The notes under the pieces are model-generated. The model had not been told where the DNA came from. It did not search any database and saw only the letters and a list, made by a program, of their open reading frames with translations. From contig NW_026570226.1 of the NCBI RefSeq assembly GCF_019649055.1, forward strand, positions 2,976,001 to 3,040,000: a stretch of DNA of 64,000 nt. The letters run 5' to 3'. How positions within the stretch are numbered: the first letter of the stretch is position 1; every line of letters begins with the position of its first letter. The stretch is from Paramacrobiotus metropolitanus (lineage: Eukaryota > Tardigrada > Eutardigrada > Parachela > Macrobiotidae). The position numbers and the translations under genes are program-made. Shown here piece by piece: positions 21,350-45,061 of the stretch.

Positions 21350-21718
21350 TGTGAGGCGATGGCTCCCTTGCGTCCACCTGCGCGACGCTACTGGCGCTAT
21401 AGGAGTGCTTCGTTGCACTACTCCGTGGGGAATTGCCGTCTGTGACGCAGCGCCTCTCTGATTGGTCGGCTACTGCCGTTCATTGTGTTCACTGCTGCGC
21501 AGTGCTTTAGAGTTGTCGAGAGCAGGTGGAATTTGGCTCTCTGAGTTGACTGAACGTCAGTGTGTTGGTTTTCATGATAGAGAACGTTAATAAAGTGTAC
21601 TACGTAGACTGGATATCGTGCGTTGTGCATTTCTTCCCTAAAACGTCACGTATTACACTCCACGGAGTCCTGTCAGTCTGGGCTACCGTCCTGGACTCTT
21701 TCACAGTCCACGGTGATA
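21350..21718 (+). repeat. 5' LTR
   Basis: 369 bp, beginning TGTGAGG and ending GGTGATA, so the termini are TG..TA rather than the usual TG..CA. Identical by eye to the 3' LTR over the whole length. It contains an inverted CCAAT box (attgg, about 21461), a TCAGT initiator-like site (21557-21561) and AATAAA (21589-21594), an arrangement that could set a short R region. Confidence 0.95.
21589..21594 (+). terminator. Poly(A) signal in 5' LTR
   Basis: AATAAA at offset 239 of the LTR; the same motif is at 44928-44933 in the 3' LTR, where it would end the genomic transcript. Confidence 0.5.
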
Positions 21719-21734
21719 TGGTAGCAGAGCCGTG
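21719..21734 (+). promoter_or_regulatory. Primer-binding site, probably for initiator tRNA-Met
   Basis: tggtagcagagccgtg starts on the first base after the LTR. Its first 11 bases (tggtagcagag) are complementary to the 3' end CTCTGCTACCA of eukaryotic initiator tRNA-Met, the primer used by Ty3 and many other elements. The match then stops. The zero-base gap fixes the LTR end independently of the repeat alignment. Confidence 0.75.
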
Positions 21735-22997
21735 AACAGACGGTTTCTGAGTAATCTGCTGGCGAACGGCCATAGTCATCTGTTTGGCGAACGGCCACGA
21801 TCATCTGTTTGGCGAACGGCCACATCGATCTGGATCATATCGATCTTATTACACCAGTAAGGCAGTGGTTTTTCTCATCTGAAGCAAGGCGCGCTCATCG
21901 ATCGGATTGCCAGCATCAACGGCTGCACTGACTAGAGAGTCTCCTGTAGGAGAACTCGTCGTGCATTTCCAATCAGACGGCAGAAGGCTGCGGTGCAAGA
22001 TCTCTCCTGTCGGAGAACTTGTGCTGTTTCCTCTGCTAGGCAGCGAGCACCTCTTGTTGGGGTCAAGGCTGTCGGGCACAAGAGCCGAGAAGCCACGAGT
22101 TGGCAGCACCGAATGAGGTGCCAAGAGATCAGTTAACGCGCTCCATCAAATTGGTTGTAGAGCGACCTGCTGGTAGGCTTGACAAGCCCAGCAGAAGGCT
22201 GAATAGGTCGGACAGGAAGGCGCCACAACCGTGCGGAATACGGCTGCGCGGGATCGGACTGTGGAGAAGATCATCTGGATCATCTTCGTAATCTGGATCA
22301 TCTTTTCGTGGGATCGGAACGGTAGACAGGTAAAAACCCGTTATTAATTATCGGATTGGTTGAGGTGTAAAATACGCAATTCTTATTGGTCGGTACTGAG
22401 CTGAGCTAGACGTAGGCGTAGTTTTTGCACGCGGCGCGCAAGTCTGGCCGTCGATCTGTGACGTCAGGCCGGTCAGAAAATTTTAACAGGCACACGTGAT
22501 TGGTCAGTTAAACGAGCTCTGATTGGTCAAAATTTTTAACGGTAAAGTCGATCTAAAACGATCTCCTAACGATCTCCCAGCAGTGAGATCGATCTCTTTT
22601 CATCGGAAACGATCTAAAATTAGCTAAAGGAGGTTAGTTTTAATTGAATTGAAGTGACCAAAAAAAGTGACCATCTCGGAGATCGATCATCTCGAGATCG
22701 TCAGTGACCTTTGAGATCAGATCAGATCAGAGAGTGACCTTTACAGATGAGCTGAGATCATCTATTTCAACCGAATACGAACTCTAAAACGATCTTTCCA
22801 GCAGTTTTATTGATATTAGCAGTTGAACGAGATCATTTTGAGGCAAACCTCTCGATCTTTTTATCGAAAAAGTGACCTTTAAAATCGAACTCGATCAAAG
22901 TAGATCAGCTAAAAAGTGATCTCAGGGACTTAAACCGATCTCATAATAACGTGTGTGTGAGCAAAACCAACAGGTGCGTCACAGTTATCCGATCACA
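21735..22997 (+). promoter_or_regulatory. Long 5' leader of the giant element, with repeats
   Basis: About 1.26 kb of probably untranslated sequence. It has three tandem copies of a 24-25 base unit around ggcgaacggcca (from 21754, 21778 and 21803); two self-complementary tctcctgt(a/c)ggaga hairpins near 21948 and 22007; a tandem atctggatcatctt repeat near 22270-22305; and many gatc/gatct motifs from 22550 to 22920. A consensus splice donor cag|gtaaaa lies at 22327-22332. Packaging, dimerisation or translation control are possible roles; none is shown. Confidence 0.6.
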
Positions 22998-25037: not shown

Positions 25038-26642
25038 CGGCCCATCGAAACAGCAGTCAAAGACGGCGCAAATCAAGATGCACGTTCCCCGCGGCACGAA
25101 CATGACGGAAGATACTTCCGCGAATATCAGAACGAACGTAATCAACGGGATGATCGAAATGAAAATCGAGGACAACGGGAATTCAACAGATCCATCAGGA
25201 ACATGGGCCGTAAAACCGATCTTACGACCTTTGATGGTAACCGAGATGCGGTAGGCGGATGGATCCGGCTGGTTAAAGAAACACAGCGAACATATGATTT
25301 AACTGATGATCAGATACTCATCGATATTGCCAGCGCCGTTAGAGGACCAGCGAAGATCTGGTTCGATAGCGAGAGAGACATCGAAGAGGCCGAAGAGGAA
25401 GCTTATACAGTAACGGAATGGTTAAACAAATTCAGAGATGAATTTGGAGATCGAAACGAGGAAGTCCTTGGTTTACGTGAAGCCATGAACAGGAAATTCA
25501 GACCTGGAAAAGAGACGCTTGAGCAGTTTTACCAAGCGATCATGAAGTTCAAAGCTAAGAAAGCTATCACCGAATTGCAAGCGGTTGCATTCCTTATCGA
25601 CGGATGCAGAGTTGATAACGATCTCTATAAGGCGCTGAAAACGAAGGGGTTCAGAACGCCAACAGAGATTAAGGACTTCTTCCGATCTTGGGCAGCTGGC
25701 GAGGATAAATACAAGGTGGTCGAAGGTCAACGTAATCAACCGGATTACGTGACCATCCGCTCGGGACAGGTCGAGATGGCACAGAGGCAATATGCAGCCA
25801 CACCGTCCCCAGTGGATTATCAGGCGAGATCACCATCCCCAACTCATAAGGAGATGACATTTATCGACAGCCAAACTGGACAGCCGATCTCATACGCCAT
25901 GGTCGCCGCGATACAAGCGCAGGCGCAGGCAAGGCCAATGGCCCCGGCAAATGTGATGCCAAGTCCCCTGAAGGGAGGGGTGCCCCAACAACAAGGAAGG
26001 TCCAATTATGGAAACGGAAACGGAAATGGAAACTGGAATGGTGGCCAACGAAATGGCAACTTCAGTCGAAACCAGGGGCAGGGCAACTATCAGCCCAATA
26101 ACCGACAAGGGAACTACCAACAGAACCGAGGCAACTATCAGCCACAACAGGGTTTCCGTACAGAATGGAAATTTGGTCAAATCGATGGATGGATCGCTCA
26201 GGGCGTGCAGCTGTGCCAGAATTGTGGATTCGGTAACCACGATGCACAGAACTGCATGTTCGCTGGTATGCTACCGAACCGGAACCCGAACTTGTTCGCC
26301 ACCCGAGAATGGGAACGGCTGCGAGCCCAAGGCGGCTGGCGACAAGCAGTAGCGAACGGCTACGATCTGGTTGCCCGATGGGCCGCGTTCAAACAGGGGA
26401 ACGGCGGCGGCGCCGGCCAGGGAAATGGAAACGGTGGCGGCGGCGGATATAACGGCGGAGGAAGAGGTGGCTTCCGCGGGCGAGGTCGCGGCAATGGACG
26501 CGGCGGCTACGGCAACCGGAACGGCGGCGGTAACGGACGCGCCGATAATAACGACGGTGGCGGCGCGAACGGCGCTGACCGGGGAAATGAACAAGTCCAG
26601 CAACAGCGGGTGTTGGACCAGGGAAACGGCCAAGATCAGTAG
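25038..26642 (+). CDS. ORF2: Gag capsid plus CCHC zinc knuckle and RGG tail
   Basis: Open from the codon after the ORF1 stop; the first ATG is at 25203 (479 aa from there, 534 from 25038). From that ATG, residues about 8-180 resemble the retrotransposon Gag/capsid fold, with a WFDSERD-like segment and RKFRPGKETLEQFYQAIMKF, matching the helix before the major homology region of gypsy Gags. Then come a Q/N/G-rich linker and one canonical zinc knuckle CQNCGFGNHDAQNC (CX2CX4HX4C, Cys near residue 338). A Gly/Asn/Arg-rich RGG tail follows, suited to RNA binding. The stop TAG at 26640-26642 lies inside a frameshift-stimulating structure. Confidence 0.88.
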   Translation, partial: RPIETAVKDGANQDARSPRHEHDGRYFREYQNERNQRDDRNENRGQREFNRSIRNMGRKTDLTTFDGNRDAVGGWIRLVKETQRTYDLTDDQILIDIASAVRGPAKIWFDSERDIEEAEEEAYTVTEWLNKFRDEFGDRNEEVLGLREAMNRKFRPGKETLEQFYQAIMKFKAKKAITELQAVAFLIDGCRVDNDLYKALKTKGFRTPTEIKDFFRSWAAGEDKYKVVEGQRNQPDYVTIRSGQVEMAQRQYAATPSPVDYQARSPSPTHKEMTFIDSQTGQPISYAMVAAIQAQAQARPMAPANVMPSPLKGGVPQQQGRSNYGNGNGNGNWNGGQRNGNFSRNQGQGNYQPNNRQGNYQQNRGNYQPQQGFRTEWKFGQIDGWIAQGVQLCQNCGFGNHDAQNCMFAGMLPNRNPNLFATREWERLRAQGGWRQAVANGYDLVARWAAFKQGNGGGAGQGNGNGGGGGYNGGGRGGFRGRGRGNGRGGYGNRNGGGNGRADNNDGGGANGADRGNEQVQQQRVLDQGNGQDQ

Positions 26643-26684
26643 GCGCCGGTGAGCCTGCTGATCTCCCTGAACCAAAACCACCGG
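26621..26684 (+). promoter_or_regulatory. -1 ribosomal frameshift signal (slippery heptamer plus H-type pseudoknot)
   Basis: G GGA AAC at 26621-26627 is in the ORF2 frame and is a known retroviral slippery heptamer. After a 5-base spacer, 26633-26644 pairs with 26653-26664 as a 12 bp stem with one G-U. Loop bases 26646-26651 (ccggtg) pair with 26679-26684 (caccgg), giving a 6 bp second stem: loop 1 has 1 base, loop 2 has 14. Slippage moves reading from ORF2 to ORF3, exactly the frame needed, 13 bases before the ORF2 stop. Pairings were checked base by base. Confidence 0.9.
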
Positions 26685-29600
26685 ATAAAAGGGAAACGCA
26701 GAATCGGACTGCGAAGGAGATGGCTAATAAGATGCCATCATCAGTGGGCAAAGCACCACAGCCACAGAATCGGACTGTAGGCGAAACGGCTAATAAGATG
26801 CCGTCATATCAGCTGAAAGAGATGGTTCATAAGATGCCATCACAAATGGACAAAAGGCCGCTTCCGCAGAATGTTACTGCGAAGTCACCACAGAATGGTA
26901 CTGTGAGTGAGATGGCTCAAAAGATGCCATCACAGGTGAAGAAAGGACCACCTGCGCAGAATGGAACTGCGAAACCACAGCAGAATAGTACTGCTGATGA
27001 TCAGTTGATAAATAAAGGAAAATGTAGTGCCGAAAAGCTAAAAGAACGGCGCGCTCAACGTAACGAGATCATTCGAAAGGCGAACTTGAAGAAGAAACTG
27101 GAAGAAAAAGAGACGAATGATCAACATTCCAGATTCCGAGAATTCCTACTTAAACAGAATGCGGAGACGAAAACGACGTTTGGGAATTGTTCGGAAGATG
27201 AAGATGACACAGTACTAAAACAAAAGTGGTTAGAACAGAACGCCACAGTGGGCAGCAAAGATGAAAAACCACTTCCTATAAGGAAAGCACCAGTGGGAGA
27301 TCGTGGAGCAAGTGCTAACGCTAAAAGCGACGACCAAAAGATCGTTGCAACAGGTCAGGCAAAGGAACTGACGCTGCGAAAAGTGCAGCTTAAAGAGGGC
27401 GAACAAGCACAACAGATCTCCGATGACTCATTGGATGATGCAGAGATGCTGCAGCGGAAGCAAGACTGGCAAAAGGTGACATATCGACCTCATGGGAACC
27501 ACGGCATGTGGATACCTGTTTCGCCGAAAGCATCTCAGAAAGCGAGGATGTCAAAAGAAGATTACTGGGACATGCAGCAGCTGCGAACGCAATTCCAGAG
27601 AAAACGTCTCGATGAGTTGGTTACCGGGAAACCAGCTCAAGGATTAATGAACCCTGTCCCAGTGTTCAACGAGATCGAATATAAAAAGACACTCGTTGAC
27701 CAAAACCGAAATGCTCCTCCAGCTGACAAACCGCCGAATTATGGAGAAAAAGTTCCGTTACAAAAATTGCCAAGCGGCGGATTCGCTATCAAACCGACTG
27801 AAAGGTCACGGGACTTTACCGAAGCATTGCAGAAAGATCCCAATGACAAGTCACCAGTTCGAACAGATGGGATGTCTTCACAAACCGATCCGACGAAAAC
27901 GAACAGTGAGGTATCGGCGAAAGTGATCGACTGGATGACCCAAAACGGATATGAGATGGTCACATATGAAAGATCACCAGATCAACCGGACAGCGAAGAA
28001 GATGAGCTAAAACGAGTTCACCAGATCACAGATGAGATCGCTGAGCATCTGCGTGACAAATCAGATGATGTCACATTGCATCAGACCATCTCTGAGGTGA
28101 TCAAAGATCACTCAGAAGTTGCGAAGGGGCAACCAAACGAAACCGAAAAGATCATCAACGATGAAAAAGCTGCAAAGAAAAAGGGGTGTGAGATGATAAA
28201 AAGTTCAAAAGATGAAAAGAAGAGACAATTTTACGATATCCGAACCGATGTCCCACATAGGATCGATCATCTGAGTTCGATACTGAGGAGGAACAACACC
28301 TTAGCGAAGGGGCAGGTGTCTTCTTCAGCAGTTGATATGGACCCGGGATCTGTATCGCTCATCCCAGTCAAGTGTACTGTTCGTACGCTTAAAGTGCAAA
28401 ATGGATCGAAGCATAATCTGCCGAAAAGGATCGAAGCGTATACACATGAGGTGAAAATCGGCGACATAAAGGTCTTAGCGATGTTGGATACTGGTGCAGA
28501 AACATCGTTAATCAGCCGACCGTTTTGCGAAAAGAACGGACTTCACGTCTTACCGCTGCCACCAGATCGATTGGTGCGAATTAATGGAATCAGCGGAACA
28601 TCAGGCTTCAACGTGACGCATTATTGCGTAGCACCAGTGACATTGCGGAAACGGACCAGTCAACACTCCTTCTATGTCCGACCCAAAACGGATGATGTAC
28701 AAGTTCTACTGGGACATGATTTTCTGGCGACAAAGTTCGTCCTGATCGATAATCATGGGGAGGAGGAAGTTGAAGATGAGCCGAAATCAGCTGTCAAAGT
28801 ACAAGCTGGAAAGGTCACTGGACTCGGAGCAGCTAAATCGGATCTCAAGGCTATCCCAGTACCAGAGGCACCGGGAAAGCAGATGATGAACCAACGAAGG
28901 GGAGGTTCACCTGCTCAGCTGTCGATAATTGAACAGATGGCAGCCATCCAAAAAGAGATCGCGACCCGATTAGGGAGGTCATCAGTTAAACCGAAAGAAC
29001 GGGCAAACGTCGTTCTCCCAGTACCAGAGGCACAGGGAACGACGAAAGATGACCAAAAAGTAACGGATAAAGATGTTATCCCAGTACCAGAGGCACTGGG
29101 AATGAACGATGAAACGCTGTTAACAATGGAGCAGATCGCAGCCATACAAAAGGAAGCAGCTGCTGAATCGAAACGATCTCTCGTACCGGGAATGGAGTGG
29201 GCAAAGTCTATCCCAGTACCAGAGGCACTGGGAATAAAAGTTGCCAAAGTATGGGACGATAAGAAGTTCGAAAAGGAACTAGACGCTCCGAAAAAGATGA
29301 CACAAGATGAGCAGATACTCTTAAGCGAGATACGAGATGGAGCGATCGAACAGCTGAGAGATCATCGAACCGAAAAACAACCGGAGATCATCGAAATCTC
29401 ATCTGACGAGATTAAACGGACATCGAATCATGGGTTTTCGAATAAGGAAATCGACGATACCAGTAACCCGTTCGCTTGCCTCGATAAAATGACACTGGAA
29501 GAACGTATCAGCAGTTGTCATCACGGTTATAATGAGAACCCGTGTCGAGTGCAACCTCAAGAGAGATGTGAGGAATGTCGTCGAGATGCTTGTCAGGATG

Positions 29601-30769: not shown

Positions 30770-30797
30770 GTCTACAGTGATCAAGAGTCTACAGTGA
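30761..30797 (+). repeat. Three ctacagtga repeats giving a stop in all three frames
   Basis: tctacagtga-type units recur three times; their TGA codons at 30767, 30778 and 30795 fall in three different frames. Ribosomes leaving ORF3 in any frame must end here, so RT cannot be reached by simple readthrough or frameshift from ORF3. Confidence 0.8.
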
Positions 30798-30846
30798 TCA
30801 ACGGACCCTTTTAAAACCATCTGTTTGTACCCGTGTAAAAGTTAGA

Positions 30847-34974: not shown

Positions 34975-35086
34975 TACTAAAAAGGGCGTTATGATGCATG
35001 CACAGGAGTTGGGGAGGTGTAAAAGTTAACCGTTATAAACTGGCTAACGGATATTGTTTCATTGTTATAGCAGGTAATAAAAGTTA
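34975..35086 (+). other. Spacer before ORF5 with acceptor-like and TAAAAGTTA motifs
   Basis: gtgtaaaagtta recurs at 35017-35028, copying the sequence just before the pol ATG (30834-30845). tttcattgttatag at 35057-35070 could be a 3' splice site, and taaaagtta at 35078-35086 touches the ORF5 ATG. The repeat suggests a shared expression signal for the downstream ORFs. Confidence 0.45.
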
Positions 35087-37378
35087 ATGGAAAGGTTGGA
35101 ACGGCAAAATTCAGAGAATTCCGACTCGGAAAGCATTGGAAATCCGTTAAAAGCATCGACGCCGATAAGAATGGAAGGCGATCGTAGCCAAGGCACTTAT
35201 TACGGAAACGAGTCCACATCGTCTGCAGGAATGGCGCAGAACGAACCGGGACAGGGAGATCAAACGGTCTACGCGGCCGGCGTCCAGGCATACTATCCGT
35301 ATCAGGACCCTACGAATTATCAGAGTACACAGAATTGGTTGACCTACGGCCATCCGGCCGGACCAACTCAATATCCGGTACAAAACGACCCATTTCAACT
35401 GTTTCCCGGAACACAGACTCCACCGATGTATGGATCTGTGCAAATGCCGATGGGACCATCGCCAGTACCCAATTTTCCGACGGGACATGGCGGATTTGGC
35501 CGGATGCCGTCCACACCTGTCCGGCACGGGGGACTTGGCGGAATGTCCGCGTCGCCTATCCGACATCACGGATTCGGAGGCCCAATGTCAGCACCAGTGC
35601 GACATGGCGGAGCAATCGGCGGATCGCCACCAGGATCGGTGCGCGGCGGAAGGGCGCCAGCACCATCTTTCCCATCACTGTTTCCTGAACAGAGTGAGAC
35701 ACCACCTATGAGGGGGAATCAACCGTCTAACAGATTCAACAGACGATCTCCGAACCAAAGAGGCGGAAGATCGCGACATGGAAATCGTAATTCACCTCGA
35801 CCACGAGGAATGTTGCCCCCATTAGGCCCACAGTTGGAGACGATGACAATAAGTCCTCCAGGTTCACCCTCCAGATATGTACCACGATTGGCGGTGAACG
35901 TGAGTGAAGATGACGATCGGCTCAACATGATTATAGGAGCGGAGGAAGAGCTCACCGCAGATGATCGGAGGGCTATCCATAATTTTAACCGTCTGTGTCG
36001 GGACTTCTATCGGATGCACGAAAGGGTGAACGATGAGCAACTCCTATACGGATACATGATAGAGCAGATGGCCGTAACCGATTCGGGACACATTGTGCTT
36101 AAGGATCGGAAAAAGAAAGTTCAGGAAGCACGGACAGACCTCGGAATCAGAGTTGCCACGATGAAAACATATCACCAGGCGTTAATAAACAGGCCGTGGC
36201 CAGAGATGATTGAAAAGATTCTGAGATGGATCGAAAAATTTCCCGAAGAAGTTGCACAGCCCGAGCCTATTGTAGCCGGCCCATCACAGATGCAACCTGC
36301 GACGAGCGGCGCACCTAAACCTGGTACATCAACTGCGAAGCCAGTTGAAGAGATGACAGATGCGGACTTAAAAGAACAGAAGAAACGAATTGACGAAGCT
36401 ATCGAGCAAAGAGCGAGATCACGTGAAAGCTCAACGGCAGATTCATCTCGCGGTAGCGTCAAACGGAATAGATCGCAGACGACAAGTCCTAAATCAACGG
36501 AGAAGGGACATCAGACTAAAAAGTCGACGGCGAGTAAGGAACCGCCGAAAGAAAAAGAGACGCCGGTACCAGTGAAGCCCACGGCGAGTAAGGAACCGCC
36601 GAAGGTGCAGGAAAAGTCTGTGGTACCAGTGAAGTCCACGGCGAGCAAGGAACCGCCGAAGACACAAGAGACATCGGTAGTTCCGGTGAAACCCTCGATG
36701 AGTAAGAAACCATCGAAGGAGCAGCAAATTGCTGTACCGGCAGGGAAGAGCTTGACTCAACTGCCACCACCACCAGCAAGAACTCCGATGATCATACCAC
36801 AAGTTAGGGCATATATGGTGACATACTCGAGATCAGAAGAAGTTCCGAATAGAGTTACTGCCCAGATCATCGATCAAGTTACGAACGAGGAGATTCCCTC
36901 ATACCATCCGAGTACACCGACAGAAATCAGAAACCAAATTACCAAACAGTCGAGAGATGAGGTGCAGGGGGCGCTACTTAAGATCAGACGCGAGGAAGAT
37001 CGCGCGGATCCACGAATCCTCATTCAGATGTTAAGACAACTGATCACGCCAATAGCCGTGAAAGAGAAAGCTTGGATCTGTATACGAGTGGGAACGCATG
37101 ACGACCACTTCGCGTACATGTACGCAACCGATGGAGAGATGCTGGCAGTTGAACGAAATCGGCTGAAAGAGGGGATCGAGTCACATGGTCAGAGGATGCC
37201 GAAAGAGGCATATGACACGACTTACTTGTACCAGGACATGACCTGTCGAGTCTTCAAATTGGGACTCCACTGTACGGTCGGATTGCCCATCGTGATGATC
37301 GCCGAAATTGTCGATCCTATATCAGGAGATCCCGTCCCATTTGCGCCTTGGTTCATATCGAAGGAAGAAAGGGAATAG
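35087..37378 (+). CDS. ORF5: large unknown protein of the giant element
   Basis: 763 aa from the ATG after taaaagtta. Residues 1-90 are polar and Tyr-rich. Residues 90-250 are Pro/Gly/Arg-rich with repeated (T/A)PVRHGG and SPIRHHGFGG units and an RGG patch, likely to bind RNA or be disordered. A compact helical region follows at about 290-390 (DDRRAIHNFNRLCRDFYRMH). Then come at least three S(T/M)(A/S)K(E/K)PPK..PVKP repeats, and a mixed alpha/beta C-terminal domain from about 560 to the end (AYMVTYSRSEEVPNRVTAQI). I recognise no family, and there is no signal peptide or membrane segment, so it is not a classical envelope. It ends in TAG, with ORF6 continuing in frame two codons later. Confidence 0.82.
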   Translation: MERLERQNSENSDSESIGNPLKASTPIRMEGDRSQGTYYGNESTSSAGMAQNEPGQGDQTVYAAGVQAYYPYQDPTNYQSTQNWLTYGHPAGPTQYPVQNDPFQLFPGTQTPPMYGSVQMPMGPSPVPNFPTGHGGFGRMPSTPVRHGGLGGMSASPIRHHGFGGPMSAPVRHGGAIGGSPPGSVRGGRAPAPSFPSLFPEQSETPPMRGNQPSNRFNRRSPNQRGGRSRHGNRNSPRPRGMLPPLGPQLETMTISPPGSPSRYVPRLAVNVSEDDDRLNMIIGAEEELTADDRRAIHNFNRLCRDFYRMHERVNDEQLLYGYMIEQMAVTDSGHIVLKDRKKKVQEARTDLGIRVATMKTYHQALINRPWPEMIEKILRWIEKFPEEVAQPEPIVAGPSQMQPATSGAPKPGTSTAKPVEEMTDADLKEQKKRIDEAIEQRARSRESSTADSSRGSVKRNRSQTTSPKSTEKGHQTKKSTASKEPPKEKETPVPVKPTASKEPPKVQEKSVVPVKSTASKEPPKTQETSVVPVKPSMSKKPSKEQQIAVPAGKSLTQLPPPPARTPMIIPQVRAYMVTYSRSEEVPNRVTAQIIDQVTNEEIPSYHPSTPTEIRNQITKQSRDEVQGALLKIRREEDRADPRILIQMLRQLITPIAVKEKAWICIRVGTHDDHFAYMYATDGEMLAVERNRLKEGIESHGQRMPKEAYDTTYLYQDMTCRVFKLGLHCTVGLPIVMIAEIVDPISGDPVPFAPWFISKEERE

Positions 37379-37387
37379 GCTAAAATG
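37376..37387 (+). promoter_or_regulatory. Stop-start junction: ORF5 TAG and ORF6 ATG in the same frame
   Basis: TAG gct aaa ATG: ORF5 stops and ORF6 starts two codons later in the same frame. The tight junction suits either TAG readthrough (giving an 1823-residue fusion) or termination-reinitiation. Confidence 0.45.
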
Positions 37388-40300
37388 GAGAACGAAAAGG
37401 CACTGGCGAATCTGTATAACATGTTACCTGAGGACAAGAAAAAAGATGTTGAAGCTAACAGAAATGGAATTCTGAATATTATGAGTCATCGAGCTGTTGA
37501 AGATGAAGCCTATGTCAGGGTGACAGTTACATATACTGAAGATGGCCAACTTCGCACGAGAGTCTACACACCACATTACCAGTTGGTTTACGAGATGGAG
37601 ACTCCGAAGAAGCATCTAACAGCAGCAGCCGAAATCCACGAAACTTATGTCCAATCAAAACAGGCAGAGGAGGAAGGTCTTGCCGGTGAAGGTGAAGATG
37701 AAGATGAACAGATGGAAGCCGAAGATGCTCCATCAGGCGAAAATGCTCCCCAGGTGGAAGGTGAACCAGTTGATGAAAATAACCCGAGACGATCGATGCA
37801 ACGGGCGATCGCGATCATCCAAGGAGCAGATCACAAGGCATGTAACGACGTGAACTGTGATCGATGTCACCCACCTGAGGAGTCCGAAACCGACGGAGAC
37901 GAAGACGATGAGGAGGATACAGTTCAGGAAGACTCAGAAGACGATGATCCAGCGCCAGGATCGTCCAAAGACGAATCCAAATCGAAATCGTCTAAAGAGG
38001 AGTCGAAACCAAGCTCATCTAAAACTGACACAAAATCAAAGAAGTCGGAGAAATCAGACAAAGGGACTGATAAACCCGGAAAGACGGGAACGGAAAAGTC
38101 CAAAGGGAAATCTCAGAAAGATCAGAAACAAAAAGGGGGAAAAAGGAAGGACCAATTCCCATCTGATGATGAAGAGATTGTGAGCGAGGAATCAGACGAG
38201 GATGATGAAGTCCTCGAAATCGACGAGAGTTTGAAGTCATCGACGACCACACCGAAAAAGGGTGTTATACAATCAGCAACATCACCAGAAGAAAAGAAAC
38301 CGAAATCGGTCGCGATAAAAAGAGCGATCAATATGGGAGAGATTATGGCAGCGTCGACTCAAAAGGAACGTAGAGAGAAAGTACAGAAGGAAAAAGGGAA
38401 ACGCGATACATCTCGCGAGTCGACAGCATCAGAGGCAAGCCGTCCGAGTACATCGACAGTTGCTTCGAAGTCGAAACCCAGCATCCCAGTTCGCGCTACG
38501 AGGAGTATGACAACGGAGCCGAAGGTGGCCCCGAACAGTCTTGAAGCGACCTTGGAAAAACAGAAACAGGCAGCATTGGAGAAACAGAAGAAAAGTGCAA
38601 AGAAGAGGAGTACTAAGAAGAAGTCTAAACCCGCGGCAGTCCGACGTGTTGATGAAGTCGGATTGGCAAATTACACCAGAAGACAGGGGAATAGCGATTT
38701 GGAATATTCGGAACCGGAAGATGAGGAACCCTTTCCCGACTTCGAGGAATTAGGGGATGATGACGACACCTTATCAGAGAATGATCTGATTGAGGCTACA
38801 AATTTCGCAATGGCTACATTTCGCACGCGAGGTGATACCTCGGTGACAGTAAGGTTCCGAATACGCGTTAAAGAATGGTTGAATAAACGAAAGCGACGTT
38901 TGACTCCATCGAAGTTGGACACGATCATCGATTTTGCCTTGAATTCTGGTAGACTGATTAAAAAACATCTCGATTGGTGCTGTAAGTCAAAGCTGATTCG
39001 AACCGGTGGAATCGACAAAAAGTTATTTGAAAAGTCCGCTGATAAGAAACGACAGATCGAATCGGCCATCTCAGGCCTACGAAGTCCGGTAGGGTCTACC
39101 AAACACCGTATTAGCCAATATATGAATGGAGTATGGCAAGGCGGAATGGGTAGAATCGCTGAGATCGAAGCGGGTAACGAGACAATGCTAACGCAGATGC
39201 TCCAAGAGGGTAAACTTCTCACCACCAACGCTTATGAAGGATCTCCGATCAGATATACCATGTTGGGATTTATACCGGAAGACATACATGATTATTGCAA
39301 CTTTTCGTCTAGCGAAGTCATGGAAAAGCTCCCAATTCCTCAACGAAATGATCCGGAAACTCCCATGCTGAATGTGCTCTTACAGAAAGGAGATCAGAAA
39401 CGGGCTGCCAAGGAAAAGATCCAGGCAGACAAGTTGAAGGAATCATTAACACCGAAGGGTATAATGGAACTTGCTTATGGATCGGATGAGGAACATGACG
39501 CACCTCCGACATCTGGCGAGGTAGCTACGACGAGCCAACAGTCACATGGTGAGAAAACGAAGGCCGTGACTCCCATGGAAAAGCTGACGGCACAAACCGA
39601 AGCGGAACTGGAAGAAATGCGCCGTCGTCGACAACAGGCATCGCTGTTGCCAACATCGAAGCAGGCAAAAACTAGTGGCGGCAAATCGAAAGCTGATTTA
39701 ACTTCCCAAGAAGAGGGAGCGGCAGCCGAAGAAGCATCGAAAGATGATGAGACGGACTCAGCTCCCACCCAGAAAAGCGAACCGAAATCGACTAAGTCGT
39801 CCTCAAGTTCAATCCCGAAACTCTCGATCGATGAAAAGGAATCAGCGTCAGAAGATCGCGACTACATGCTTGGGATTCCACTGGATAATCAGAACCACGC
39901 TTGGTGCGAACTGAAACGCATCTTAGCGAGAGAGCCATTCCAGACGATGACTCAAAAAGATCTTAGAGCGACAATCTGCGCCAACCGAGTCTTGAAATTA
40001 TCTGGTGTGAGCTTTGACAGGATGACCAAGAGGGCCTACAAAGAAGGAAAGTTGGGCTTTTGTTACTCGGACTCTAACAGATGGTCATATTACCTGCCAC
40101 AACCAACACTTCATCCACGACTGAAGATGGAACTGAAGTTTTGGAAAATCGCCATTACTGACGCGGCAATGCCGAGACTTGGTGGATCGATGGGAGTTAC
40201 ATGGGACGATCTATCGAACTTCTTTGCCGTGAACTATGAGCTGGGAATCTATAACATCGAGAGAGATCGCGCTGTGATCAAACAAGCGGTGGAAAGTCTC

Positions 40301-40558
40301 CTCGACGATAGCCTTCTTGAGATTAAGAACAAGCGTATCTTCTCAAAACCCGTGGAGCTTCCAGAAGATACTCCTGAGAAGGAGATCGTGGATTCAGCGA
40401 ACATCCCGGCATCTCAGGAAGTTGTCTTGGAATCGCAACAACCAGCATCGGCCGAGCCCGTAGCCGGCGATGCTCAAATGAAACCAGCAGAAACTGGAGA
40501 TGCGGTGTCAGCAGCGACTGAGGCATTGGAGTCGGCTGACACATCGGCAAAAGAGTGA
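37385..40558 (+). CDS. ORF6: large acidic/lysine-rich unknown protein, possible winged-helix C-part
   Basis: 1057 aa. Residues 1-80 are compact. Residues 95-340 are strongly acidic and Ser/Lys-rich, with a HKACNDVNCDRCH Cys cluster and many KKSK patches, resembling nuclear or chromatin proteins. Residues about 480-640 form a basic helical domain (RVKEWLNKRKRRLTPSKLD). The C-terminal part has two similar helical units; residues about 910-990 (HPRLKMELKFWKIAITDA, ending DSLLEIKNKRIF) follow the helix-helix-helix-wing pattern of linker-histone/winged-helix domains. That likeness is my reading only and is weak. No signal peptide or transmembrane segment. It may bind DNA or chromatin, but no function is established. 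Confidence 0.8.
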   Translation: MENEKALANLYNMLPEDKKKDVEANRNGILNIMSHRAVEDEAYVRVTVTYTEDGQLRTRVYTPHYQLVYEMETPKKHLTAAAEIHETYVQSKQAEEEGLAGEGEDEDEQMEAEDAPSGENAPQVEGEPVDENNPRRSMQRAIAIIQGADHKACNDVNCDRCHPPEESETDGDEDDEEDTVQEDSEDDDPAPGSSKDESKSKSSKEESKPSSSKTDTKSKKSEKSDKGTDKPGKTGTEKSKGKSQKDQKQKGGKRKDQFPSDDEEIVSEESDEDDEVLEIDESLKSSTTTPKKGVIQSATSPEEKKPKSVAIKRAINMGEIMAASTQKERREKVQKEKGKRDTSRESTASEASRPSTSTVASKSKPSIPVRATRSMTTEPKVAPNSLEATLEKQKQAALEKQKKSAKKRSTKKKSKPAAVRRVDEVGLANYTRRQGNSDLEYSEPEDEEPFPDFEELGDDDDTLSENDLIEATNFAMATFRTRGDTSVTVRFRIRVKEWLNKRKRRLTPSKLDTIIDFALNSGRLIKKHLDWCCKSKLIRTGGIDKKLFEKSADKKRQIESAISGLRSPVGSTKHRISQYMNGVWQGGMGRIAEIEAGNETMLTQMLQEGKLLTTNAYEGSPIRYTMLGFIPEDIHDYCNFSSSEVMEKLPIPQRNDPETPMLNVLLQKGDQKRAAKEKIQADKLKESLTPKGIMELAYGSDEEHDAPPTSGEVATTSQQSHGEKTKAVTPMEKLTAQTEAELEEMRRRRQQASLLPTSKQAKTSGGKSKADLTSQEEGAAAEEASKDDETDSAPTQKSEPKSTKSSSSSIPKLSIDEKESASEDRDYMLGIPLDNQNHAWCELKRILAREPFQTMTQKDLRATICANRVLKLSGVSFDRMTKRAYKEGKLGFCYSDSNRWSYYLPQPTLHPRLKMELKFWKIAITDAAMPRLGGSMGVTWDDLSNFFAVNYELGIYNIERDRAVIKQAVESLLDDSLLEIKNKRIFSKPVELPEDTPEKEIVDSANIPASQEVVLESQQPASAEPVAGDAQMKPAETGDAVSAATEALESADTSAKE

Positions 40559-40928
40559 ACACGAGATGCGTGAAATGCGGTCAGGAAGGTCCACCGCATA
40601 CCACAGAGGAAACAGCATCATATCAGTTTAACGAAAGCGAAAAAGTTGGAAAAAAACGTTGAAACAGATGGTTGAGATGGCTTAGCGAATGTGCTACATG
40701 AGATGAGAAGATGAGATAATCACATCAGTCAAATAGGCGAATGAGCTTAGAACTGATAACATGGAAAGGTCACCATGTTACAGTGTTAAAAATGTCGTCA
40801 TGAGCTAGGAAGGTCTCAGCTCAGTACGGAAATAGCCTAAAATAGGCGTAAAAGATGATAAGAATGATCGGGAGATGGCTACGAAATGATAATTTGACAT
40901 GCCTTAACATTGCAGATTAAAACCGAAG
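40559..40928 (+). other. Spacer between ORF6 and ORF7
   Basis: 370 bases, rich in gatgag/agatgag motifs, with stops in every frame. It ends with cttaacattgcag at 40903-40915, a good 3' splice site with a branch-like ttaac, 13 bases before the ORF7 ATG. This favours expression of ORF7 from a spliced RNA. Confidence 0.5.
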
Positions 40929-43898
40929 ATGTCGGAAAAAGGTCCGACCAAGTCGAACACTCAAGCGGCGGCACCGGCGGCGAGAAGTCAAGCAGCACCA
41001 GCAGCAGCCGCGAGTAACCAAGCCCGATCTACAACCGGAAAAAACCAAGCAGCACCGACATCCACGCGAAGTCAGGTAGCGCCATCCACAAGTCAGGCGG
41101 CACCTGTGCCACAAGGTAGTCAACCGATAGCTGCGAAGAATCAAGCCGCACCTACGAATGTGCGAAGTCAACCGGCACCCCCGCGATCTCAACTTGCGAC
41201 CGCACCTGCCGCGAACCAGCCAAAACCGTGGATTGATCCGTTTACGGGCTATAATTCTAAATGTCCGGACTGTATCAGAAACAACAAGGTTGAAAAAGGA
41301 GATTACCCTTGCTGGTTCTGCATCTTCAAAGAACCGAATCGAACTCTGGTGGCATATACTGAAGCTATTCGCGGGAATAAAGACGTTTTCCGAGCCATAA
41401 CATCAGCAGAGGCATGGAAGACAGTTCCACCAAGAGAAAAGATGCTGATTGAAGATCGATATCGTCAGGCGATCAAGAACGGTGAGATCGGCTGGGACGC
41501 GACGTACGAACCTCCACAAGACGACTTATGCGATGCTTTCCGCAAAAAGTTTGAGGCGGATCAAGCAAAGATGATGGAGGAGAAACGACAGAAGGATCTG
41601 GAAGACAGTAGAAAACGTGCCGAACAACGGGCAGCCCAGGATTACCGAGAAAGATCGGTGCAGGGCAAAGTTCCTATTCCTGTGGCTCAACTGAATACAG
41701 CCGAAGCGGAGGTAAGAGTGAAGGCCATTCTCCTCCAGATCGATGAATTAATTAAGGAACCGTCAAAGATCCGCGCAAGTACATTCGAACTCCTCCTACG
41801 AGAGAAAATGAGATTGGAAAGAGGCGAACCACTTAAACCTGATGCGAAGATGCTCATCGAAAAGATGACCGAGGAGGTTCGAAAGACACACGAAATGGAG
41901 CGCGATGTTATGAAAGCCTTTCAAAGTTTTCGGCGTGATGAAGGTTTTCAACGGCCTCGATCACCAGTGCGAAGGGAACATCAACGATCACGAGAGTATT
42001 CACATGAACGCAACTATGACTCTCGCAATGAAAGATCAAGAGAACGTTCCCGCGAAAGGACTCGTGACTATCATAACGAAAGAGATGATAGATCACGCTC
42101 GCGAGATCACGATTACCGAGGCGGCAGATCATGGGTGCGACACGGAGATCAAGTGATTGAGACCAGTGCCCATCGTCGCCATGTACCAGATAACCGACGA
42201 CGAGATGAACCTCGTCAAGATGAAACGCGCAGGGATGAACCACGTCAACAGATACCGATGGGAGTTGGTTTTTGCCACCCAAAGGTCAGAGGGTTCACAC
42301 CAGAACGACGAGAAGGAACTTTAGCGGGACCTGCCCGAAGCCGCAGCCCATATGATAAGGGATGGCAGGATGATATGAATTACTTTGCCAGTTTCCCGAT
42401 CAACCATAAACGAACTTCGAGTGGAGAACGCGACGATACTCCGCCGAAACAGCCGAAAGTGAAATCCGTGGTTCACATGGTAGAACCATTGATCGTGACG
42501 ATGGATGAAGATGAACCGATGGAGACATCGTCGGTTGATAACGTCGTTCATAAACGGAACGTAGTATTAGATCGCGATCTCGAACCATCGACATCGTCGC
42601 GACGTGAGCAGGAAGGTCCTCACGAATCGCAGAAGGAACCGGATAAACGATATCAGCCCGAACGTCAACGTCAACAGGAACGACCTGATCGACGACGCGA
42701 AGATGGTCGCCGGAGAGATCAGTCTCGCTTTGATAACTCACGTCGGAGGCTGATCAGTAAAATGTATGATATGGACGATATTGAAACCCAAAGAGCGGAA
42801 ATCTGTCGCTACTTTGGACTGGAAATTGAATCGGAGCAGTCAGTGATGATACATGCGCAGCTCCATAACCTTCGCCAGTTTCTACGGGATTCTAATTACG
42901 AAACGGATCTCAGAGAGAGCAACCTCGGTCGCCTGGAGATCACCACTGAATCTGCGATGGCGTGTTACACACCCATCCGACAATGTGGCTTACCGAGTCT
43001 CCTCGACTTGAGCTTATGGGAAGTCCCACTGGATACAATCGACAATACGGGACTTACACAGTTCCGCTACCAAGAAATTAAGGAGCGAAGTCTATACGTG
43101 GCACAATTCGTGCTACGTAACGTGAATCCGGCATTCAAGGTACTTGCGGCACGAGCAGCCATTGGACTGACGGTTGACCCTACCGACTACAAATCACGAG
43201 TTTTCGGTCAGAAGGTCTTTGCTGCGAGATTGGGCCATTTTCCTACACAGAATCAGTTGTTTTCGAACTTTACGAAGGGGGAAGTTCCGCCTGTGTACCG
43301 GGAAAAGGTTGCTAAACTAGGGATGCCAGCGCGACATCAGGCGATCGCACGTAAAGCAAACGACGAATTGGCGATCTGCAAAAAGCGATTTGATGATTGT
43401 AACCTCCATGAAATACACGAAGCACAGTACCAGGAAAGAATCAATCGAATCCGAGATACTATGGACACGCCGTATATCGAGCCGCAAGATCGAGTCCATG
43501 AGTACGTCGAAGATCACCTGGTATGGAAGGGATCGAAACAGCCGACAACTTCCAAAGTTCCGAATACACCGGGCAGACGAGCTGCTCGAAACCAGAATAT
43601 CCGGAACCAATATGAGGACGCCAGACAACGGTTGGCAGAAGATCCTCAAGATCGAAACTTGCAACGCGAAGAGAACGATGCACGACATCGTTTGGACGCG
43701 ATCAAACGCTCACGACAAGGGAAAGGTCGCGGTCCACGACACATCGTCTTACGTGTTCAAGCGGATGAGGACGCACCGGCTGAATCAGCTGCACCAGTTG
43801 ATCGGACTTCTGATCGAAATCAGCCGGGCTCAACGCGCAAACGTCCACCGCGAGACAAGGACGATGGAGATGAGTCGAACGAGATGATGGATCAGTAA
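40929..43898 (+). CDS. ORF7: unknown protein with four-Cys zinc motif and RS-like region
   Basis: 989 aa. Residues 1-95 are a repetitive Ala/Gln/Pro/Ser region (N/SQA(A)P.. repeats). Cys112-x2-Cys115-x12-Cys128-x2-Cys131 (CPDC..CWFC) forms a plausible zinc ribbon. Residues 200-330 are a charged helix. Residues about 340-430 are Arg/Ser/Glu/Asp-rich (RSRERSRERTRDYH), like SR-type RNA-binding regions. Residues about 610-830 look like a folded helical domain (LSLWEVPLDTIDNTG). The tail is basic. I know no family with this combination. The frame differs from ORF6, with a 370-base gap between them, so it has an independent start. RNA binding is the best guess. Confidence 0.82.
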   Translation: MSEKGPTKSNTQAAAPAARSQAAPAAAASNQARSTTGKNQAAPTSTRSQVAPSTSQAAPVPQGSQPIAAKNQAAPTNVRSQPAPPRSQLATAPAANQPKPWIDPFTGYNSKCPDCIRNNKVEKGDYPCWFCIFKEPNRTLVAYTEAIRGNKDVFRAITSAEAWKTVPPREKMLIEDRYRQAIKNGEIGWDATYEPPQDDLCDAFRKKFEADQAKMMEEKRQKDLEDSRKRAEQRAAQDYRERSVQGKVPIPVAQLNTAEAEVRVKAILLQIDELIKEPSKIRASTFELLLREKMRLERGEPLKPDAKMLIEKMTEEVRKTHEMERDVMKAFQSFRRDEGFQRPRSPVRREHQRSREYSHERNYDSRNERSRERSRERTRDYHNERDDRSRSRDHDYRGGRSWVRHGDQVIETSAHRRHVPDNRRRDEPRQDETRRDEPRQQIPMGVGFCHPKVRGFTPERREGTLAGPARSRSPYDKGWQDDMNYFASFPINHKRTSSGERDDTPPKQPKVKSVVHMVEPLIVTMDEDEPMETSSVDNVVHKRNVVLDRDLEPSTSSRREQEGPHESQKEPDKRYQPERQRQQERPDRRREDGRRRDQSRFDNSRRRLISKMYDMDDIETQRAEICRYFGLEIESEQSVMIHAQLHNLRQFLRDSNYETDLRESNLGRLEITTESAMACYTPIRQCGLPSLLDLSLWEVPLDTIDNTGLTQFRYQEIKERSLYVAQFVLRNVNPAFKVLAARAAIGLTVDPTDYKSRVFGQKVFAARLGHFPTQNQLFSNFTKGEVPPVYREKVAKLGMPARHQAIARKANDELAICKKRFDDCNLHEIHEAQYQERINRIRDTMDTPYIEPQDRVHEYVEDHLVWKGSKQPTTSKVPNTPGRRAARNQNIRNQYEDARQRLAEDPQDRNLQREENDARHRLDAIKRSRQGKGRGPRHIVLRVQADEDAPAESAAPVDRTSDRNQPGSTRKRPPRDKDDGDESNEMMDQ

Positions 43899-44688
43899 AA
43901 CTGATTAATAGGAGTTGTTACGGCTTATGTCGGCATCCCTATTTATCGACTCATCTTAGTTAAGAGTAGCTACGGTACATTTGGCCGGCTCTCTAAATAA
44001 GGCAGAAGAGATGGATTGTGCGACGAGATGAACTTTACCAGGGAGGCAAGCTGAGATGAGCTTGAAAGCCGATGAAAAATGGCTAAGTTTCTCCATGACC
44101 TATGCTGAATGAACCGTACCAGACGACGTCGCACATCCACGATCAGAAAGATGATCTTACCAGGGAGGAAGCGAACTTCGCTTGTCTATATGACGTCCCT
44201 CCATGACTTAACCGGATCTCATTATAAAGTCGTACAATTGATACGCACCTATTCCAAAGCTGAAGCAGTATTCCTAAGTCGTACATTCGATACGCACCCT
44301 ATTCCTAAAAGCGGATGTGATGAAAGTCGCACGAAGATGCGCAAAGATGCTCAAGCGGAGCGACGTTGCTCAAGATGGAGCGGAATGGGCCAAAGAGATG
44401 TGGAAAACGGTGGACAGGACCAGTGACCTACGCGAGTCAATGGAGGATCCTAGTCTACATGTTTCATTTAACTGCATCTGTTGATCTGTTATAACTGTTG
44501 ATCTGTTTATATGGAATAGTATTTTTATACAGATCTCTTTATTTCACATTGTGCATTTGGAATCATGTGATAAGAAGGAATAAGAGATTTGATGTTTTTT
44601 TTTTTTACGAGAGCGCGCACAGACCACCGATCGGAGCGGAATGGAATGGATCGAGCTTCGACGGAGCTCAGCCTCCCACCCAGAGGCA
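43899..44688 (+). promoter_or_regulatory. 3' untranslated region of the giant element with paired repeats
   Basis: Two similar blocks, each ttaccagggagg followed by a short hairpin (aagct..agctt near 44048; aagcga..tcgctt near 44171) and then ctccatgac. A second pair, cgtaca(a/t)t(t/c)gatacgcacc(c)tattcc, occurs near 44230 and 44280. A run of 14 T is at about 44591-44604. No clear polypurine tract touches the 3' LTR: the last bases are ctcccacccagaggca. The nearest purine-rich stretch is ggagcggaatggaatgga near 44634-44651. Confidence 0.55.
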
Positions 44689-45057
44689 TGTGAGGCGATG
44701 GCTCCCTTGCGTCCACCTGCGCGACGCTACTGGCGCTATAGGAGTGCTTCGTTGCACTACTCCGTGGGGAATTGCCGTCTGTGACGCAGCGCCTCTCTGA
44801 TTGGTCGGCTACTGCCGTTCATTGTGTTCACTGCTGCGCAGTGCTTTAGAGTTGTCGAGAGCAGGTGGAATTTGGCTCTCTGAGTTGACTGAACGTCAGT
44901 GTGTTGGTTTTCATGATAGAGAACGTTAATAAAGTGTACTACGTAGACTGGATATCGTGCGTTGTGCATTTCTTCCCTAAAACGTCACGTATTACACTCC
45001 ACGGAGTCCTGTCAGTCTGGGCTACCGTCCTGGACTCTTTCACAGTCCACGGTGATA
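44689..45057 (+). repeat. 3' LTR
   Basis: 369 bp, identical by eye to the 5' LTR, again starting TGTGAGG and ending GGTGATA. The poly(A) signal aataaa is at 44928-44933. The ctgg target duplication follows at 45058-45061. Confidence 0.95.
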
Positions 45058-45061
45058 CTGG

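What the first reader, a model, noticed from the sequence alone, without database searches (positions are those of the whole stretch)
21350..45057. A 23.7 kb, apparently intact gypsy-type retrotransposon with a retrovirus-like multi-ORF plan
The sequence shows identical 369 bp LTRs, a 4 bp target duplication, a primer-binding site and seven unbroken ORFs totalling about 6,800 codons. Known giant elements (Ogre in plants, Burro in planarians) reach this size, but here the extra length is mostly coding. Intact RT, RNase H, integrase and protease motifs suggest it can move by itself. The gene order gagN-gagC-pro-pol-X-Y-Z is not one I know.
Basis: partly seen in the sequence, partly recalled or inferred. 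Interest (0 to 1): 0.92.

Follow-up and report, generated by a model that had tools for sequence, protein, structure and literature searches.

The report
Giant four-gene retrotransposon in a tardigrade
The window holds one recently inserted but damaged copy of a very long family of jumping genes in a water bear, whose relatives carry four large genes under selection and appear to use retrovirus-like tricks (ribosomal frameshifting and RNA splicing) to express them.

Summary
The element is real: identical 369-bp LTRs, a 4-bp target duplication, a primer-binding site and seven ORFs at the stated places. The host is the tardigrade Paramacrobiotus metropolitanus. The "intact seven-ORF plan" is wrong. 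Comparison with nine other 23-24 kb copies shows the window copy broken in three genes: an in-frame stop in gag, a deletion of about 270 nt in pro-pol, an in-frame stop in ORF5/6. The family plan is four genes: gag, pro-pol, ORF5/6, ORF7. Gag and pro-pol overlap at a conserved G GGA AAC slippery site plus pseudoknot (-1 frameshift). ORF5/6 and ORF7 lie behind conserved splice-acceptor-like sites, with a donor-like site in the leader, so spliced mRNAs are likely (no RNA tested). All ORFs evolve under purifying selection. A sister subfamily copy with unrelated LTR sequence (24.7 kb, identical LTRs) keeps the plan although its ORF5, 6 and 7 are only 38-48% identical. Copies without ORF5-7 exist; those examined are deletion derivatives. 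Two of three more distant relatives sampled have an ORF7-like gene after pol and no detectable ORF5/6. No envelope protein is seen. It is a new giant lineage of Ty3/gypsy elements, near Burro in internal length.

The parts
21350..21718 (+). 5' LTR, 369 bp, TG...TA; AATAAA at about 21589
   Evidence: identical to 3' LTR; 40 further match rows, some partial, in the genome
21346..21349 (.). target-site duplication CTGG, 5' copy
45058..45061 (.). target-site duplication CTGG, 3' copy
21719..21729 (+). primer-binding site TGGTAGCAGAG
   Evidence: follows the LTR directly; same 11 bases in 8 of 8 other copies printed and in the subfamily B copy; tRNA assignment recalled
22326..22335 (+). candidate splice donor ACAG|GTAAAA (intron would begin at 22330)
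   Evidence: in 9 of 10 copies as such, ACGG|GTAAAA in the tenth; TTG|GTAAAA at the matching distance in the subfamily B copy; position
   Evidence: no stop at that place in 9 of 9 other copies; stop-to-stop frame of 1,243 aa in C46 and 1,264 aa in the subfamily B copy
26621..26683 (+). -1 frameshift signal: slippery G GGA AAC 26621-26627, 6-nt spacer, stem 1 26634-26644/26653-26663, pseudoknot stem 26646-26651/26678-26683
   Evidence: fold z -4.27, stem 1 in the predicted fold; stem 2 named by eye; 165 of 165 cells paired in 10 copies; kept in subfamily B; only such heptamer inside the gag/pro overlap 26591-26639
   Evidence: Pfam; 256-271 nt more in 9 of 9 other copies; frames of 2,982-3,141 aa without stop in the matches at 6 of 34 scored loci
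35054..35077 (+). candidate splice acceptor TTGTTTCATTGTTATAGCAG (ends 35073) directly followed by donor-like GTAA
   Evidence: in 10 of 10 copies apart from T or C at the second base; TTGTTTCATTTTATAGAAG|GTAAGC in subfamily B; position
35087..40558 (+). accessory gene ORF5/6; interrupted here by an in-frame stop at 37376-37378
   Evidence: no stop there in 9 of 9 other copies; frames of 1,652-1,848 aa without stop in the matches at 4 of 43 scored candidates; dN/dS 0.10-0.23
40559..40928 (+). conserved non-coding stretch with three hairpins (AAGGTC-like loops)
   Evidence: 83.9-93.0% identical in nine copies; 27 pairs, 97.6% of cells paired, five pairs with a change on both sides, 0 of 500 shuffles as high
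40903..40915 (+). candidate splice acceptor CTTAACATTGCAG before ORF7
   Evidence: AG kept in 9 of 10 copies, not in C167; TTTTATAATTACAG in subfamily B; position
40929..43898 (+). accessory gene ORF7: CxxC...CxxC region (112-131), RS/RE-rich stretch (340-400), conserved C-terminal part
   Evidence: dN/dS 0.09-0.16; 10 protein clusters found, each named as this species; match rows of 49-100% identity in the genome, the window's own included
44677..44688 (+). CACCCAGAGGCA directly before 3' LTR (place of the plus-strand primer; not a classical polypurine tract)
   Evidence: same 12 bases in 8 of 8 copies printed
44689..45057 (+). 3' LTR, 369 bp

Best explanation
This is one copy, recently inserted and damaged, of a multi-copy, recently active family of giant Ty3/gypsy (Metaviridae-type) LTR retrotransposons in Paramacrobiotus metropolitanus. 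The plan of the family is four genes. The full-length RNA is translated into Gag; a -1 frameshift at G GGA AAC before a pseudoknot yields Gag-Pro-Pol. The two genes after pol are most likely made from spliced mRNAs that join the leader donor to an acceptor before ORF5/6 or before ORF7. Their products have no clear membrane segment and are charged, largely disordered, ORF7 with a zinc-like motif and an RS/RE stretch; I infer that they act in trans on the element's own RNA (export, splicing balance or packaging), with the hairpin stretch before ORF7 as a possible binding site. Shown by sequence: copies, plan, selection, conservation of the frameshift signal and of splice-site-like motifs. Inferred: frameshifting, splicing and the role of ORF5-7.
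For: Nine of nine fetched 23-24 kb copies carry parts of all seven ORFs in the same order. LTR pairs within the eight of them with two whole LTRs are 98.1-100% identical, although their LTRs differ from the window's by up to 18%, so several subfamilies moved recently. Of nine copies with two whole LTRs, window included, six have a 4/4 TSD, two 3/4 and one 1/4. dN/dS against nine copies: ORF5 0.12-0.18, ORF6 0.10-0.23, ORF7 0.09-0.16, ORF4 0.06-0.14. Frameshift signal. Splice-site motifs. Subfamily B copy at C1:842974-867641: LTRs identical over 364 bp and unrelated in sequence to those here, a 1,264-aa gag frame, a 3,077-aa pro-pol frame, ORF5/6 and ORF7, with ORF5/6/7 only 39/38/48% identical to the window's. 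Pol resembles Ty3 most among solved structures, E 1.9e-90. Two short copies at different loci share the deletion junction 39846|43935, with the same 63 unmatched bases between, so a form without ORF5-7 seems to have moved after the deletion, which fits supply in trans.
Against: No transcript or protein evidence was available. The ORF7 acceptor AG is missing in one of ten copies (C167). Predicted structures of ORF6 and ORF7 are of low confidence (mean pLDDT 38 and 43), so no fold supports a function. The frameshift stems show one-sided changes in two pairs and none on both sides in the ten copies, and shuffles do as well; in the predicted fold bases of the slippery site pair too. For the hairpin stretch the whole-region covariation term is slightly unfavourable (+0.41), and the three hairpins were picked from that same alignment. 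Many copies carry frameshifts or stops, partly perhaps assembly errors; the same could explain the window's private stops. One of three more distant relatives has a different ORF after pol.
Confidence: 0.8

Rival explanations
1. The seven ORFs are seven real genes of an intact element, and the stops and gap are programmed (stop read-through and re-initiation).
For: Each ORF is long and open in the window and the LTRs are identical.
Against: The two stops and the ORF3/ORF4 gap occur in none of nine other copies; long single frames exist elsewhere.
Confidence: 0.04
2. ORF5-7 are host or foreign sequence caught by one copy, or joined by misassembly.
For: Copies without ORF5-7 exist: C6:365922-380511 and C35; C265 lacks ORF5/6 and the first part of ORF7.
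Against: ORF5-7 are in 9 of 9 long copies fetched and in a diverged subfamily copy with its own LTRs; C6 and C35 keep an ORF6 relic between pol and the 3' end.
Confidence: 0.03
3. An endogenous retrovirus with an envelope gene among ORF5-7.
For: Position after pol and acceptor-like sites resemble env genes.
Against: No Pfam env or glycoprotein match; highest 19-residue hydropathy in ORF5, ORF6, ORF7 is 1.60, 0.65, 0.97 and no strongly hydrophobic N terminus. The 1.60 stretch near residue 725 of ORF5 is borderline.
Confidence: 0.05
4. ORF5/6 and ORF7 act on the host (chromatin, silencing or DNA damage response), not on the element's RNA.
For: Basic, RS-rich and acidic disordered-looking proteins would also fit nuclear host targets; they diverge much faster than RT (RT 94% against 38-48%).
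Against: No direct evidence either way; the conserved hairpins next to ORF7 suggest a target on the element's RNA.
Confidence: 0.35

Closest known systems
Burro giant gypsy-like elements of planarians (PMC6431247, passages seen)
   Same: Gypsy-type; internal region up to 25 kb, mostly coding; very many copies
   Different: Burro packs its domains, env-like part included, into one 4,873-aa polyprotein and exceeds 30 kb with LTRs; here four genes, 369-bp LTRs, no env-like or apoptosis domain found by Pfam
Ogre / Tat elements of plants (PMC6431247, PMC9289625, passages seen)
   Same: Total length up to 25 kb, extra ORFs, a putative intron
   Different: Ogre internal region is 11-13 kb with LTRs of 1.9-6.5 kb and a tRNA-Arg primer site; here internal region 22.97 kb (window) and about 23.9 kb (subfamily B copy), short LTRs, TGGTAGCAGAG
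Cer1 of C. elegans with its CERV protein (PMC10309623, passages seen)
   Same: Gypsy/Ty3-type, ecdysozoan host, non-env gene after pol made from a spliced mRNA; CERV is nuclear and needed for export of unspliced RNA
   Different: One such gene of 517 aa against about 1,800 plus 990 aa; sequence relation not tested
Retand and other plant elements with ORFs between pol and 3' LTR (PMC11963269, PMC7264820, abstracts seen)
   Same: Long stretch between pol and 3' LTR with extra ORFs, possible regulators
   Different: Retand's extra ORFs are antisense and its pol-3' LTR stretch is 2.9-6.6 kb
LTR elements of bdelloid rotifers with ORF3 (PMC5408684, abstract seen)
   Same: Non-env genes after pol in a microscopic invertebrate
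   Different: ORF3 there are enzymes (GDSL esterase, DEDDy exonuclease) or env-like; no such Pfam match here

Membership tests
Ty3/gypsy (Metaviridae) | order protease - RT - RNase H - integrase | tested here: met
   protease in ORF3, then RT, RNase H, H2C2 and rve in this order in ORF4; one frame in relatives
Ty3/gypsy (Metaviridae) | RT related to Ty3 | tested here: met
   Ty3 best, E 1.9e-90. A tree against named Metaviridae clades could not be built; in a tree of 33 rows the five rows of this species form one clade (100/100) on a long branch
Ty3/gypsy (Metaviridae) | LTRs, short target duplication and tRNA primer site | tested here: met
   the primer tRNA itself not looked for
Errantivirus / endogenous retrovirus | env gene with membrane anchor | tested here: not met
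Burro | single giant polyprotein with env-like and apoptosis or ubiquitin domains | tested here: not met
   four genes; no such Pfam domain. Sequence comparison with Burro not run
Ogre / Tat | tRNA-Arg primer site, kb-long LTRs | tested here: not met
   TGGTAGCAGAG, 369-bp LTR
Cer1/CERV-like elements | spliced accessory gene after pol needed for export of genomic RNA | not testable with these tools
   splice-site motifs only; no RNA or function data
-1 frameshift gag/pro-pol elements | in-phase slippery heptamer, short spacer, stem or pseudoknot, overlap of frames | tested here: met
   sequence features only:

The most novel reading that the evidence does not exclude
A complex-retrovirus-like control system without an envelope: the leader donor is joined first to the site before ORF5, where the acceptor AG is directly followed by GTAA in 11 of 11 copies compared (ten, subfamily B) and so rebuilds a donor (a ratchet or zero-length exon); a second step from that rebuilt donor reaches the ORF7 acceptor. 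ORF7 would then bind the hairpins that only unspliced and ORF5/6 RNAs keep, and lead the 23-kb RNA out of the nucleus. In this view ORF7 is the old accessory gene of a wider family in this animal and ORF5/6 was added later, which made the element a giant.
Probability: 0.2. Interest if true: 0.85.

Novelty: new variant of a known kind. Interest (0 to 1): 0.7.

Why it matters
It adds a lineage to the very few LTR retrotransposons with an internal region over 20 kb, outside plants and planarians, and in a small genome (170 Mb) where full copies, deletion derivatives and related families can be compared side by side. It goes well past the limit near 10 kb that a review names as traditional for retrotransposons (PMC6431247, passages), and offers a natural test of what very long elements need beyond gag and pol: two large accessory genes under purifying selection, one of which can be traced to simpler relatives.

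Tried and rejected
Fold predictions for ORF7 (10 sequences) and ORF6 (3 sequences) gave mean pLDDT 43 and 38, so no fold search was made. A winged-helix idea for the end of ORF6 rests on eye and a low-confidence model and is dropped. Rfam had no match up to E 1 in 21300-45100. Sequence search of solved structures found nothing for ORF6 and one weak match (E 0.34, a receptor construct) for ORF2. An RT tree against named elements was not possible: seven named hits were dropped because their matches spread over more than 600 residues, and only every fourth unnamed hit was taken, leaving 33 rows. A tRNA scan of the window found nothing; the primer tRNA was not looked for in the genome. Literature: 9 of 10 searches used; none of the listings showed this family; 'Paramacrobiotus' with 'retrotransposon' gave no paper; a tardigrade transposon paper covers two other species and has no 'metropolitanus' in its text (PMC11071193, passages). 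The planarian genome paper that named Burro was not held.
Full report
Where it is. The window is C6:2976001-3040000 of a genome of 169.8 Mb in 533 contigs. Protein records that match best are named Paramacrobiotus metropolitanus, two of them on a contig of 4,484,719 bases, the length of C1 here; the published assembly of this tardigrade is given as 170 Mbp with a longest scaffold of 4.48 M, built by Canu, with ONT reads of N50 about 17 kb (PMC11191345, passages).

The observation. LTRs, target duplication, primer site and ORFs are as described. The element is 23,708 bp, its internal part 22,970 bp. Pfam finds aspartic protease in ORF3 and RT, RNase H and integrase in ORF4, and nothing above its cut-offs in ORF1, 2, 5, 6, 7. 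ORF2 bears a CCHC knuckle and a capsid-like part, the latter judged by eye.

The family. The LTR search gave 42 match rows, two of them the window's own, with 40 of 80 candidates scored. Pairs 23.1-24.1 kb apart are seen at nine further loci (one with a partial 5' LTR), pairs 12-16 kb apart at four, one pair 41.6 kb apart. I fetched the nine long ones in pieces. All nine hold parts of all seven ORFs in the same order. Pol, ORF7 and ORF6 searches of the genome had 2,454, 949 and 1,468 first-look candidates, of which 34, 46 and 43 were scored, so the family is large but not counted. By reading together, 15 of the 34 pol loci have an ORF7 row downstream, 14 of them 5.4-6.5 kb away and one (C7) 1.8 kb; two lack it by deletion; the other 17 cannot be judged because most ORF7 candidates were not scored or the contig ends.

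Four genes, not seven. In 9 of 9 other long copies no stop stands where ORF1 meets ORF2 or ORF5 meets ORF6 in the window, and between two shared anchors around the ORF3/ORF4 gap they have 289-304 nt against 33 in the window, a deletion of about 270 nt. Long frames agree: gag 1,243 aa stop to stop in C46 and 1,264 aa in the subfamily B copy; pro-pol 2,982-3,141 aa without stop in the matched stretches at 6 of 34 loci (a seventh, C223, has one stop); ORF5/6 1,652-1,848 aa at C113, C97, C44 and C167, 4 of 43 candidates (C1:677570 reads 1,793 aa only with stops inside). The window copy is therefore damaged in gag, pro-pol and ORF5/6, or in part misread. The other copies have stops and shifts of their own; I did not look for, and do not name, an undamaged one.

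Frameshift. The gag stop is the same in 10 of 10 copies; in the window the pro frame overlaps gag by 49 nt in the -1 frame, in subfamily B by 70. Only one in-phase slippery heptamer, G GGA AAC, lies inside the overlap; three others in ORF2 lie before it. Six bases on starts an 11-bp stem whose loop can pair with CACCGG downstream. Fold z is -4.27 for 101 nt; the predicted fold has stem 1 and also pairs some slippery bases. In ten copies 165 of 165 cells pair; two pairs vary on one side and none on both, so conservation rather than covariation supports it (one row was cut short for five pairs of the second stem). The subfamily B copy keeps heptamer, phase, spacer and both stems (stems by eye).

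Splice signals. ACAG|GTAAAA lies 611 nt after the 5' LTR, in 9 of 10 copies in this form, and GTAAAA lies 617 nt after it in subfamily B. Before ORF5 a pyrimidine-rich TTGTTTCATTGTTATAGCAG (second base T or C) is followed by GTAA in all ten and, slightly changed, in B. Before ORF7 an acceptor-like CAG is in 9 of 10 and in B. A copy of a more distant family, C68, has TTTCCTTTCCTTAACAG just before its own extra ORF. These are motifs; no RNA was seen, and no splice-site score was computed. The leader before the donor holds one ATG at 22113 besides the one at the LTR end, so first-AUG initiation on spliced mRNAs is possible but not clean.

Selection. dN/dS (Nei-Gojobori, over tblastn matches, shifted frames included) between the window and nine copies is 0.12-0.18 for ORF5, 0.10-0.23 for ORF6, 0.09-0.16 for ORF7, 0.06-0.14 for ORF4, 0.16-0.31 for ORF3, 0.06-0.09 for ORF2 and 0.11-0.37 for ORF1. 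The accessory genes are thus kept about as strictly as the rest. The stretch between ORF6 and ORF7 is 83.9-93.0% identical in nine copies, with 30 invariant bases in ten. Three hairpins picked from the consensus fold have five pairs changed on both sides, each in one row, four of them in subfamily B and one in C1a by my reading; 0 of 500 shuffles reach that, but such shuffles ignore relatedness, and the covariation term of the whole region is slightly unfavourable (+0.41).

Sister subfamily. C1:842974-867641 (minus strand, about 24.7 kb) has LTRs identical over 364 bp with no significant similarity to the window's LTR; GGCA flanks both ends if the LTR starts at TGTGAGA. Identities to the window: ORF1 53%, ORF2 60%, ORF3 51-54%, ORF4 77% (RT 94%), ORF5 39%, ORF6 38%, ORF7 48%. 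Its ORF6 region holds one apparent frameshift. So the plan is old relative to the accessory proteins, and two lineages with it moved lately.

Short copies. C6:365922-380511 and C35:562755-578107 pass from the end of pol (window 34771 and 35030) to a relic of ORF6 (39674 or 39627 to 39846), 63 unmatched bases, and then 43935 to the 3' LTR; C265 passes from 33760 to 41815 and so keeps most of ORF7. C6 and C35 share the second junction, so a deleted form seems to have spread. That suggests the lost functions can be supplied by other copies. C17 was not examined.

Wider kin. A search with P0010 shows further families of pro-pol frames (up to 2,626 aa; 30 of 3,285 candidates scored). Just after pol, two of three sampled copies, C42 and C37, have an ORF7-like ORF (32-34% over 187-224 aa, E 1e-14 to 1e-17) and no detectable ORF5/6 in the stretches fetched (6.5 and 2.3 kb); the third, C68 (2.5 kb), has another ORF of at least 717 aa without convincing match to ORF5-7. 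My reading is that ORF7 is the older accessory gene and ORF5/6 a later gain; with three short samples this is a lead.

Function. ORF5-7 have no clear membrane segment and no Pfam match above cut-off; ORF6 has no solved relative by sequence (ORF5 and ORF7 not searched there), and ORF6 and ORF7 relatives were found only in this species. The nearest worked-out precedent is CERV of Cer1, a spliced non-env gene after pol that is needed for export of unspliced RNA (PMC10309623, passages). By analogy I put RNA handling first for ORF7, with about 0.4 probability, and leave ORF5/6 open.

Comparison of size. The review of giant transposons gives up to 25 kb internal for Burro and 11-13 kb for Ogre (PMC6431247, passages). 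Here it is 23.0 and about 23.9 kb. I know of no LTR element of this size from ecdysozoans; my searches listed none.

Noticed in passing
window 8442-10575 (-) and 14612-16242 (+); perhaps 1224-1907 (-): ORFs with FAD_binding_4 and berberine-bridge-like (BBE) domains on both strands: a small cluster of BBE-type oxidases beside the element, unusual to my knowledge in animals and perhaps of foreign origin.
   Followed up: no
window 46829-47836 (+): ORF with a rhodopsin-type receptor domain (7tm_1, E 5e-14), about 1.8 kb after the 3' LTR.
   Followed up: no
window 22540-22960: Leader very rich in GATC/CGATCT and GTGACC words by eye, a possible binding or packaging array.
   Followed up: no
window 26712-26993, 28852-29243, 36511-36735: Internal coding repeats in ORF3 (90-nt units; IPVPEA-type units after the protease) and ORF5 (57-nt units).
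   Followed up: no
C113:44363-85956: LTR pair 41.6 kb apart holding ORF6 and ORF7 matches: perhaps a nested insertion; not fetched.
   Followed up: no
L042, L043, L044 (C42, C68, C37): Related pro-pol families carry different ORFs after pol: ORF7-like in two, another ORF of at least 717 aa behind an acceptor-like site in one.
   Followed up: partly
window 35072-35077 and subfamily B copy (L037): Acceptor AG directly followed by donor-like GTAA in 11 of 11 copies compared, a possible ratchet splice site.
   Followed up: partly
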